Assembly: GCA_021299265.1 (NCBI GenBank)
Contig: JAJTGP010000013.1
Coordinates: 1 to 46,319, forward strand
Reading direction: 5' to 3'
DNA: 46,319 nucleotides
Source of the DNA: Hyphomonadaceae bacterium
Lineage (GTDB): Bacteria > Pseudomonadota > Alphaproteobacteria > Caulobacterales > Aquidulcibacteraceae
Positions 4,032 through 4,739 of the stretch are shown one piece after another. Numbering within the stretch: position 1 is the first letter of the stretch; every line of letters starts with the position of its first letter. Below the pieces are notes generated by a model. It had not been told where the DNA came from. It searched no databases and worked only from the letters and a program-made list of their open reading frames with translations. The position numbers were made by a program, and so were the translations under genes.

Positions 4032-4053
4032 AAAAATGCACAAAGGGCGAAAA

Positions 4054-4088
4054 ATGTGTTTGACACATGTGGTGTGCTATAGTAGTAA
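4054..4088 (+). promoter_or_regulatory. Candidate promoter with overlapping operator-like dyad, micropeptide cassette
   Basis: A perfect consensus -35 box TTGACA lies at 4060-4065. At 17-base spacing there is TAGTAA (4083-4088), a weak -10. The -35 is embedded in a perfect palindrome: ATGTGT (4054-4059), TTG, ACACAT (4063-4068). A second self-complementary 8-mer, CACATGTG, is at 4064-4071. A dyad over a -35 box is the usual arrangement for a repressor operator. The binding protein is unknown. Confidence 0.55.
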
Positions 4089-4096
4089 TACACCCA

Positions 4097-4113
4097 TGCA
4101 CTACAGCAGTGCA
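4097..4113. promoter_or_regulatory. Perfect 6-5-6 inverted repeat at the predicted transcript start
   Basis: TGCACT (4097-4102), ACAGC, AGTGCA (4108-4113) is a perfect dyad placed where the micropeptide transcript should begin (+1 to about +17). It could be a second operator or a stabilising 5' stem-loop in the RNA. It lies 38 bases before the first micropeptide ATG. Confidence 0.5.
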
Positions 4114-4150
4114 GCACAAACACAACGACAGACCAACAGGAGAAACCAAC

Positions 4151-4231
4151 ATGATCACTTTTATCGTCACTATCTGGCTCAGCGCTTTGGGTGCCGGCAT
4201 GGCCACGATGGCAGCCACCGAACGCAACTAA
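4151..4231 (+). CDS. Hydrophobic 26-residue micropeptide, copy 1 of 3
   Basis: An ATG with AGGAG (4138-4142) eight bases upstream opens exactly 26 codons ending in TAA. The peptide begins MITFIVTIWLSALG, continues AGMATMAATERN, and is a single predicted transmembrane segment with a charged E-R pair at the very end. Aligned without gaps to copies 2 and 3 it shares M1, I2, W9, L10, S11, G16, M20, A21, A22 and R25, with E or D at 24. Three same-length, same-pattern genes, each with a ribosome binding site, between a promoter and a terminator make coding strongly likely. I do not recognise the family. Small hydrophobic type I toxins and small regulatory subunits of membrane complexes are both possible; neither is shown. 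Confidence 0.75.
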   Translation: MITFIVTIWLSALGAGMATMAATERN

Positions 4232-4266
4232 GTCAAATCTTCCACATTCTACCTCCCCCCCAAAAA

Positions 4267-4280
4267 TCCTCCCCGCTTCA
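4267..4280 (+). repeat. Leader element shared by micropeptide copies 2 and 3 (first instance)
   Basis: TCCTCCCCGCTTCA occurs here, 22 bases before the ATG of copy 2, and recurs with a two-base insertion at 4456-4471 before copy 3. The duplication unit therefore includes untranslated sequence. The TCCT at its start could pair with the AGGA of the ribosome binding site (4291-4294); this is speculative because it is only four pairs. Confidence 0.45.
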
Positions 4281-4302
4281 AGAAATCAAAAGGAACATCA
4301 AC

Positions 4303-4383
4303 ATGATCACTCTCGCAATCACCGCTTGGCTCAGCCTCTTAGGCGCAGGTTTAGCTTCTATGGCCGCTGCAGAGCGCGCCTAA
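4303..4383 (+). CDS. Hydrophobic 26-residue micropeptide, copy 2 of 3
   Basis: A second 26-codon gene starting at ATG 4303 behind AAAGGAA (4289-4295). The peptide begins MITLAITAWLSLLG and continues AGLASMAAAERA. It is closest to copy 1: the bases CAACATGATCACT around the start are identical in both. It is separated by 71 bases from copy 1 and 105 bases from copy 3. One predicted membrane helix, net charge near zero, no cysteine. A longer in-frame ORF runs upstream to 3973, but only the 26-codon part has a ribosome binding site and paralogues. Confidence 0.75.
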   Translation: MITLAITAWLSLLGAGLASMAAAERA

Positions 4384-4455
4384 GACTTCAAGCGCTCTCC
4401 ACACCATCTCCTTCGACCCTCCATAAATCGCCGCTAAAACACATCATAAACCCGC

Positions 4456-4471
4456 TCCTCCCCGAGCTTCA
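4456..4471 (+). repeat. Leader element shared by micropeptide copies 2 and 3 (second instance)
   Basis: TCCTCCCCGAGCTTCA, 17 bases before the ATG of copy 3, matches 4267-4280 apart from an inserted AG. The TCCT again has a partner AGGA (4477-4480) in the following ribosome binding site, and GCTC/GAGC around CTCCCC could form a small hairpin. Confidence 0.45.
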
Positions 4472-4488
4472 CACCAAGGATAAACAAA

Positions 4489-4569
4489 ATGATCAACCTT
4501 ATTGTCGCCGCCTGGCTTTCTGTTGTCGCTTCTGGCCTTCTGGGTATGGCCGCTTCTGACCGCCACTAG
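4489..4569 (+). CDS. Hydrophobic 26-residue micropeptide, copy 3 of 3
   Basis: The third 26-codon gene, ATG 4489, TAG 4567-4569, with AAGGA at 4476-4480 as ribosome binding site. The peptide begins [14 protein letters not shown] and continues [12 protein letters not shown]. It is the most diverged copy but keeps M1, I2, W9-L10-S11, G16, M20-A21-A22, acidic 24 and R25. Substitutions among the copies are mostly conservative (I/V/A/L, E/D, T/S/A), which suggests selection on the peptide. Followed 70 bases later by a strong intrinsic terminator. Confidence 0.75.
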
Positions 4570-4639
4570 TCGGACCACCTTTCAACGAACCGGCATCGTC
4601 AGCCCCTACGCCTCCAACGTCCCAACGATGCCCAAACTG

Positions 4640-4666
4640 GGGCCGGTTCAGCCGGCCCTATTTTTT
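4640..4666 (+). terminator. Intrinsic terminator of the micropeptide cassette
   Basis: A perfect GC-rich stem GGGCCGG (4640-4646) / CCGGCCC (4652-4658) with a TTCAG loop, followed by TATTTTTT. This closes the micropeptide transcript and isolates it from metG, which starts 73 bases later. Confidence 0.9.
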
Positions 4667-4739
4667 GTCTGACGGTATTTTCTGGGGCTTGTGCGGTCCA
4701 AGCCTTGGATGGCGCGCTCAAATCGCCTACATCAAGATC

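What the first reader, a model, noticed from the sequence alone, without database searches (positions are those of the whole stretch)
4151..4569. Three tandem 26-codon genes for related hydrophobic micropeptides
Three ORFs of exactly 26 codons, each with its own ribosome binding site, align without gaps. They share M1, I2, W9-L10-S11, G16, M20-A21-A22, an acidic residue at 24 and R25, with conservative changes elsewhere. They sit between a consensus -35 and a strong intrinsic terminator, in a 500-base region otherwise without genes. I do not recognise the family. The arrangement recalls small repeated membrane peptides such as type I toxins (Ibs, Ldr) or small accessory subunits, but no antisense RNA or partner is evident. 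This is the best candidate for an undescribed system in the window.
Basis: partly seen in the sequence, partly recalled or inferred. Interest (0 to 1): 0.9.

Follow-up and report, generated by a model that had tools for sequence, protein, structure and literature searches.

The report
Three membrane micropeptides under YtrA-type repressor
Three tiny membrane-spanning peptides, encoded one after another in a freshwater bacterium, appear to be switched on by the same repressor that controls a distant membrane transporter, which points to a hidden working partnership between them.

Summary
Three 26-codon genes lie at 4151-4231, 4303-4383 and 4489-4569. All three are in all 9 genomes held of the genus (Aquidulcibacter / Ca. 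Phycosocius group), with dN/dS 0.14-0.21; a divergent pair occurs in another genus.

A 24-bp GGTG-N16-CACC operator overlaps the promoter at 4071-4094. The composite promoter-operator occurs at one other place in the genome, before a YtrA-type GntR repressor with an ABC transporter operon. All 9 genus genomes have exactly two such sites: the peptide operon and ytrA. In 398 genomes of the order there are 36 sites and no control match: 16 before ytrA, 15 before micropeptide genes, 5 before other membrane or ABC genes. In a third genus the same promoter drives a 37-39-aa membrane peptide with no detectable sequence relation.

The peptides are uniformly hydrophobic single helices. I found no specific evidence for a type I toxin.

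Best reading: co-induced membrane accessory peptides of a YtrA-regulated transporter, comparable to Bacillus YtrG but encoded in trans and in triplicate. Regulon membership is well supported by sequence; the biochemical role is inferred.

The parts
4060..4094 (+). Composite promoter-operator: -35 TTGACA (4060-4065), then operator
   Evidence: TTGACN6RGTGTNNTANNNTNNNANNACACY, at most 1 mismatch: 36 sites in 17 of 398 order genomes, 0 reversed-pattern control matches; read
4071..4094 (+). 24-bp YtrA-type operator GGTG-N16-CACC, covering the spacer and -10 region
   Evidence: GGTG-N16-CACC is the reported site of a Xanthomonas citri YtrA-like regulator (passage in PMC6746942)
4097..4113 (+). Small inverted repeat / 5'-UTR hairpin; role unknown
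   Evidence: centroid structure; 5'-UTR 97% identical to the window over 9 genomes, window included
4151..4231 (+). Micropeptide gene 1, 26 aa, MITFIVTIWLSALGAGMATMAATERN
   Evidence: dN/dS 0.21
4303..4383 (+). Micropeptide gene 2, 26 aa, MITLAITAWLSLLGAGLASMAAAERA
   Evidence: dN/dS 0.14
4489..4569 (+). Micropeptide gene 3, 26 aa, [26 protein letters not shown]
   Evidence: dN/dS 0.16
4638..4660 (+). Intrinsic terminator hairpin, followed by TTTTTT

Best explanation
The three genes form one operon whose promoter is blocked by a YtrA-subfamily GntR repressor encoded elsewhere in the genome (G000:C238:6579-6944, just upstream of its ABC transporter ATPase, a 97-aa protein with a hydrophobic stretch and a 352-aa permease). 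When an envelope signal releases the repressor, the transporter and the three peptides are made together. Each peptide inserts as one short transmembrane helix. The peptides most likely work with the transporter as accessory or modulatory membrane subunits, much as YtrG accompanies the Bacillus Ytr transporter. SHOWN from sequence: genes, conservation, purifying selection, shared promoter-operator, co-occurrence with ytrA, hydrophobic-helix composition. INFERRED: repressor binding, co-induction, membrane insertion, contact with the transporter, and the nature of the signal.
For: Own genome: the 24-bp operator (at most 2 mismatches) is at only two places, the peptide operon and ytrA-ABC (control pattern 1+1). 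The composite promoter-operator has exactly two sites in each of the 9 genus genomes; 36 sites in 17 of 398 order genomes, 0 control matches. By gene-match positions or reading: 16 precede ytrA, 15 precede micropeptide genes, 5 precede DUF4386-type or ABC genes. In G014 (another genus) the peptides lie at an unrelated chromosomal place yet keep the operator. In genus g7 (5 of 5 genomes) the same promoter drives a 37-39-aa one-helix peptide. In 60 family genomes, an operator-driven micropeptide is found in 15 of 17 with a ytrA orthologue (E below 1e-20) and in 0 of 43 without (Fisher; three genera only, so not independent; limits under evidence against). The regulator is GntR by Pfam (5e-14) and matches the 113-aa GntR structure 3tqn end to end (1e-35). 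Window peptides: best 18-residue mean hydrophobicity 0.70-0.74, moment 0.13-0.18. B. subtilis precedent: the YtrA operon carries YtrG, a small transmembrane protein (PMC12772383 abstract and passages).
Against: No binding, expression or interaction data. The peptide operator is symmetric at only 14 of 24 positions (18 of 24 at ytrA). The 24-mer alone is not rare: about 6 chance matches are expected per genome at 2 mismatches with uniform bases, and in the family search control matches were about as frequent as pattern matches in many genomes; only the composite is decisive. The '0 of 43' rests on the composite pattern: 14 of those 43 genomes had 24-mer matches at 2 mismatches whose surroundings I did not read, and micropeptides behind other operators are not excluded (one candidate in G022). 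ABC genes behind ytrA were read in only 3 of the 9 genus genomes (G000; G001 and G008), with Pfam only for G000. Two genomes with a ytrA orthologue (G025, 87% complete; G016, 63%) showed no second site, and two genomes of another family (G321, G342) have a YtrA-type regulon of ABC genes with no micropeptide seen. The g1 and g7 peptides show no detectable homology: independent recruitment, or any hydrophobic peptide serves. YtrG is described as not predicted to be part of the transporter (PMC12772383 passage).
Confidence: 0.55

Rival explanations
1. The peptides belong to the YtrA regulon but act independently of the transporter, as general membrane-stress peptides (packing, fluidity, or modulation of another membrane enzyme).
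For: Operator-like sites in other genera also precede unrelated membrane proteins: DUF4386 and an ABC ATPase behind composite sites, and DUF2306, a 165-aa membrane protein and a 374-aa permease-like protein behind weaker sites. Peptides differ between genera without detectable homology. A further 37-aa membrane peptide in 8 of 9 genus genomes sits behind a different 24-bp inverted repeat.
Against: In genus g1 the composite sites are only those of ytrA and the peptides, which favours a pairwise link.
Confidence: 0.25
2. The peptides are the transporter's cargo, as with staphylococcal PSM peptides and the Pmt exporter: exported small peptides that may also relieve the repressor.
For: Short tandem peptides plus an ABC transporter under a GntR-type repressor; [quoted passage not shown] The ATPase has a match to chain 6xjh_C (1.5e-14; that this entry is the Pmt exporter is recalled, not from a call).
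Against: The peptides are uniformly hydrophobic with low moments (no amphipathic reference peptide was run beside them). About forty other distinct sequences match the ATPase better. The permease has no meaningful sequence or fold match to solved structures (the model is only moderate, pTM 0.64, so the fold result is weak). PmtR regulates only pmt (section 8), unlike the shared operator here.
Confidence: 0.12
3. A type I toxin-like locus (Ibs/Ldr kind): membrane-depolarising peptides held down by antisense RNA.
For: Size, hydrophobicity and tandem copies resemble such loci (recalled).
Against: No antisense promoter-like site (a weak scan that also missed the sense promoter), no Rfam family above threshold, no sequestered ribosome sites, and a repressor-type operator on the promoter.
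Confidence: 0.04
4. Leader peptides or a regulatory RNA for the gene downstream, metG (recognised by eye, not searched).
For: A methionyl-tRNA synthetase-like frame follows at about 4740.
Against: Strong terminator before it; no regulatory RNA family above threshold; the codon pattern shows selection on protein; in G014 the peptides lie before a different gene.
Confidence: 0.02

Closest known systems
Bacillus subtilis YtrA regulon (ytrGABCDEF, ywoBCD), small transmembrane protein YtrG
   Different: YtrG is encoded inside the transporter operon; here three related 26-aa peptides form their own operon at another locus. Homology to YtrG was not tested.
Staphylococcus aureus PSM peptides / PmtABCD / PmtR
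   Same: Short peptides, an ABC transporter and a GntR-type repressor (PMC5080381 abstract and section 8); tandem PSM genes are recalled.
   Different: Here the peptides are uniformly hydrophobic with low moments, and the operator lies on the peptide operon itself, whereas PmtR regulates only pmt.
Xanthomonas citri YtrA-like regulator (Zhou 2017)
   Same: Operator GGTG-N16-CACC (passage in PMC6746942; the original paper is not held).
   Different: Its regulon was not examined here; I know of no micropeptide operon in it.
Type I toxins Ibs/Ldr
   Same: Short hydrophobic peptides, repeated genes (recalled).
   Different: Operator on the promoter, no antisense RNA evidence, open ribosome sites.

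Membership tests
YtrA-subfamily regulon | Regulator with GntR winged helix and a short C-terminal domain, total 120-130 aa | tested here: met
   121-123 aa by start codon; Pfam GntR 5e-14 at residues 13-74; full-length match to 113-aa 3tqn; size stated in PMC6746942 passage
YtrA-subfamily regulon | Regulator gene in operon with an ABC transporter | tested here: met
   ATPase frame overlaps the regulator's end, then a 97-aa protein and a 352-aa permease-like protein; same layout read in G001 and G008. The permease has no Pfam match
YtrA-subfamily regulon | Long palindromic operator (about 24 bp) with distant half-sites | tested here: met
   GGTGT-N14-ACACC at both operons
YtrA-subfamily regulon | Regulator binds the operator and represses | not testable with these tools
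   Needs EMSA or footprinting
YtrG-like small membrane proteins | Small single-pass membrane protein in a YtrA regulon | tested here: met
   Operator; composition of a membrane helix; insertion itself not tested
YtrG-like small membrane proteins | Encoded within the ytr operon | tested here: not met
   Peptides are on contig C57, the ytr-type operon on C238
YtrG-like small membrane proteins | Sequence homology to YtrG | not tested
   YtrG sequence not fetched
PSM/Pmt peptides | Amphipathic helix | tested here: not met
   Moments 0.13-0.18 with mean hydrophobicity 0.70-0.74; no reference peptide run beside them
PSM/Pmt peptides | Exported by the co-regulated ABC transporter | not testable with these tools
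   Needs secretion assay
Type I toxin-antitoxin | Overlapping antisense RNA | tested here: inconclusive
   No promoter-like site on either strand, but the scan also missed the sense promoter
Type I toxin-antitoxin | Structured leader hiding the ribosome site | tested here: not met
   Three leader stretches fold no better than shuffles (z 1.33, 1.46, 0.40)
Known protein families | Match to a Pfam, NCBIfam, PHROGs or PADLOC family | tested here: not met
   17 family members: best E 0.11, 0.12 and 0.19 in Pfam, NCBIfam and PHROGs; 3 window peptides, none in PADLOC

The most novel reading that the evidence does not exclude
YtrA-type regulons in this bacterial family routinely include a separately encoded set of transmembrane micropeptides that modulate the YtrA-controlled ABC transporter. 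The peptide sequences are replaced between genera (26-aa triplets in one, an unrelated 37-39-aa peptide in another) while the promoter-operator and the pairing stay fixed. These small membrane proteins, like the unexplained YtrG, would then be a general, overlooked component of YtrA transporters.
Probability: 0.35. Interest if true: 0.78.

Novelty: new variant of a known kind. Interest (0 to 1): 0.62.

Why it matters
The Bacillus ytr operon is used as a reporter of cell-wall inhibition, yet its role, and that of YtrG, is poorly understood (PMC12772383 abstract). A trans-encoded micropeptide operon with the same operator gives a genetic handle: deleting, tagging or swapping three 26-aa genes would show whether small membrane peptides are working parts of such transporters. 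It also shows that operator sequence can reveal micropeptide genes that protein similarity does not, since the g1 and g7 peptides share no detectable homology.

Tried and rejected
Pfam, NCBIfam, PHROGs and PADLOC for the peptides: nothing. Phage and plasmid DNA collections with window 4040-4680: no match, so no sign of a phage or plasmid element. Rfam: two sub-threshold hits, both on the terminator. Peptide profile across 398 order genomes: 23 genomes matched; I keep the 9 genus genomes and G014 and set aside 13 others with one hit each at E 0.004-0.01 inside frames of 321-577 codons. In the family search hits of three other genomes (G030, G052, G056) and one extra G003 hit, all E 0.007-0.09, were set aside likewise. 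Genome-contig scan: 8 loci whose contig lengths equal those of G001-G008; only one peptide pattern was scanned, so distant relatives could be missed. Class-wide composite search (385 genomes): besides our own two sites, one weak site (G645, not read) and one good-looking operator before a larger ordinary frame (G762, read), against one control match, so nothing beyond chance. Permease model (pTM 0.64) and PDB fold search: no match at E 0.001. Profile comparison of the g1 and g7 peptides: none. A chance expectation printed used 13 specified bases instead of 15 and is wrong; one search corrects it. The promoter scan found no promoter at all, sense included; the promoter call rests on the conserved composite.

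Literature: the listings showed no paper describing these peptides or trans-encoded micropeptides in a YtrA regulon. The library holds open-licence PMC papers only and I read few of those listed, so this is not proof of absence. Seen: PMC12772383 abstract and passages; PMC5080381 abstract and section 8; PMC6746942 and PMC4494728 passages; others as listings only; PMC6638223 not held.

Full report
WHAT IS THERE. Three ORFs of 26 codons lie at 4151-4231, 4303-4383 and 4489-4569 on the + strand, each preceded by a purine-rich Shine-Dalgarno. They align without gaps, with M1, I2, W9, L10, S11, G16, M20, A21, A22 and R25 invariant and E or D at 24. Upstream is TTGACA at 4060-4065; downstream is a strong terminator hairpin at 4638-4660.

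NOT CHANCE. A profile of the three peptides finds three copies in 9 of 9 genomes of the same genus and two in G014 of another genus, among 60 genomes of the family; in the nine, all 27 genes are 26 codons long. Over the nine genomes the variable columns fall 24/14/54 of 75 at codon positions 1/2/3. dN/dS is 0.21, 0.14 and 0.16 (pairs are not independent). Base identity to the window (window counted) is 0.89-0.93 in the ORFs, 0.70-0.75 in the gaps and 0.98 in the promoter-operator, though the DNA just upstream (0.91), the 5'-UTR (0.97) and the terminator (0.90) are also well kept. The same position in different genomes is more alike on average (0.87-0.91) than different positions in one genome (0.50-0.69), so the three are old, distinct paralogues. 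The exception is G008, where copies 1 and 2 are 88% alike; the number there is still three.

THE MISSING PARTNER. A 24-bp element GGTGTGCTATAGTAGTAATACACC at 4071-4094 covers the promoter spacer and -10 region. It has the form GGTG-N16-CACC, which a paper on an archaeal YtrA attributes to a YtrA-like regulator of Xanthomonas citri (PMC6746942 passage). In the window's genome the element (at most 2 mismatches) occurs at one other place, G000:C238:6513-6536. There, 42 bp on, lies a GntR regulator of 121-123 aa, followed by an ABC ATPase, a 97-aa protein and a 352-aa permease-like protein without Pfam match. The regulator matches short GntR structures over its full length (3tqn, 1e-35), as expected of the YtrA subfamily, whose members have a short C-terminal domain, long palindromes and mostly ABC operons (PMC4494728 and PMC6746942 passages).

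STRENGTH OF THE LINK. The 24-mer alone is not decisive: control pattern 1+1 in the own genome, control matches about as frequent as real ones in many family genomes, and about 6 chance matches expected at 2 mismatches. The composite with the -35 at fixed spacing is decisive: at most 1 mismatch, 398 genomes of the order, 36 sites in 17 genomes, no match of the reversed control in any (uniform-base expectation about 2). All nine genus genomes have exactly two sites. By the positions of the gene matches or by reading the DNA behind them I assign the 36 as 16 before ytrA, 15 before micropeptide genes and 5 before other membrane or ABC genes (DUF4386 by Pfam in G020, by likeness in G018 and G021; an ABC ATPase-like frame in G321 and G342). 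The ABC genes behind ytrA were read in 3 of the 9 genus genomes (G000, G001 and G008). In the class-wide search (385 genomes) there was nothing beyond chance outside the window's own genome (2 sites, 1 control match).

THE PATTERN RECURS WITH OTHER PEPTIDES. In G014 the peptide operon (27 and 29 aa, perhaps also a 47-aa ORF) is at an unrelated place but keeps promoter and operator. In genus g7, all 5 genomes have the promoter-operator before a 37-39-aa one-helix peptide, with no detectable relation to the 26-aa family. In 60 family genomes, 15 of the 17 with a ytrA orthologue (E below 1e-20) have an operator-driven micropeptide, and 0 of 43 without (Fisher; three genera only). That zero rests on the composite pattern; weaker 24-mer matches in 14 of the 43 were not read. 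The two exceptions among the 17 are incomplete genomes, G025 (87%) and G016 (63%). Against generality: G321 and G342, of another family, have YtrA-type sites before ytrA, an ABC ATPase and a permease-like protein, and no micropeptide was seen.

WHAT THE PEPTIDES ARE. Each is one hydrophobic stretch of about 22 residues with a charged E/D-R end. Mean hydrophobicity is 0.70-0.74 and moment 0.13-0.18, which I read as a membrane-spanning rather than a surface-seeking helix; no reference peptides were run beside them. Small residues at S11, A/S15, G16 and A21-A22 would suit helix packing (inference). No known family matches.

HOW IT PROBABLY WORKS. The repressor sits on the spacer and -10 of both operons. 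A membrane or cell-wall signal lifts it, by analogy with the Bacillus ytr operon, which is induced by lipid-II-cycle inhibitors; the same paper found no consistent role in antibiotic survival but an effect on cell-wall synthesis (PMC12772383 abstract). Transporter and peptides are then made together, and the peptides enter the inner membrane and modulate or complete the transporter. The shared switch is well supported by sequence; binding, induction, insertion and contact are inferred. [quoted passage not shown] The cargo reading, modelled on PSM/Pmt/PmtR (PMC5080381 abstract and section 8), is kept as a rival but fits the helix type poorly. The type I toxin reading has no specific support: unsequestered ribosome sites, operator on the promoter, no antisense promoter-like site in a weak scan.

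NOVELTY. YtrA regulons with ABC transporters, and one small membrane protein in cis, are known. A separate three-gene micropeptide operon with the same operator, recurring across genera with unrelated peptides, appeared in none of the listings. I rate it a new variant of a known kind.

Noticed in passing
G000:C231:1485-1513 (L199) and 7 other genus genomes (L193-L198, L200): A different 24-bp inverted repeat, ATGAAC-N12-GTTCAT, abuts TTGACA before a 37-aa one-helix peptide (ending GE.AAR.AGY); in 8 of 9 genus genomes, 0 control matches. It has weak similarity to the g7 peptide family (E 0.003-0.03 in three genomes). A second, apparently repressor-controlled micropeptide; regulator unknown.
   Followed up: partly
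window 4553-4720 and L002 1380-1570 (G000:C158): The end of peptide gene 3 with terminator and following DNA recurs as a relic behind a gene I take for a TonB receptor (not searched). G005 (two copies, one of them read as L029) and G004 (L023) have a complete extra copy of gene 3; neither genome has a third composite operator site.
   Followed up: partly
window 4097-4113: Short inverted repeat TGCACT-ACAGC-AGTGCA at the start of the presumed transcript, in a 5'-UTR kept in the genus; might be a stabilising hairpin or a second operator.
   Followed up: no
G022:C8:34670 (L188): A 30-aa hydrophobic ORF (E 7e-4 to the g7 family) lies behind a perfect GGTGTGAC-CACC-GTCACACC palindrome.
   Followed up: no
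L106, L111 between ATPase and permease genes: In genus g7 a small lysine-rich ORF (read by eye) lies where g1 has the 97-aa protein of the ABC operon.
   Followed up: no
G321:C18:39706 and G342:C58:45703 (L180, L181): In another family an operator-like site (2 mismatches) also lies before a 374-aa protein resembling a DevC-type ABC permease (resemblance recalled), suggesting a multi-operon YtrA regulon.
   Followed up: partly
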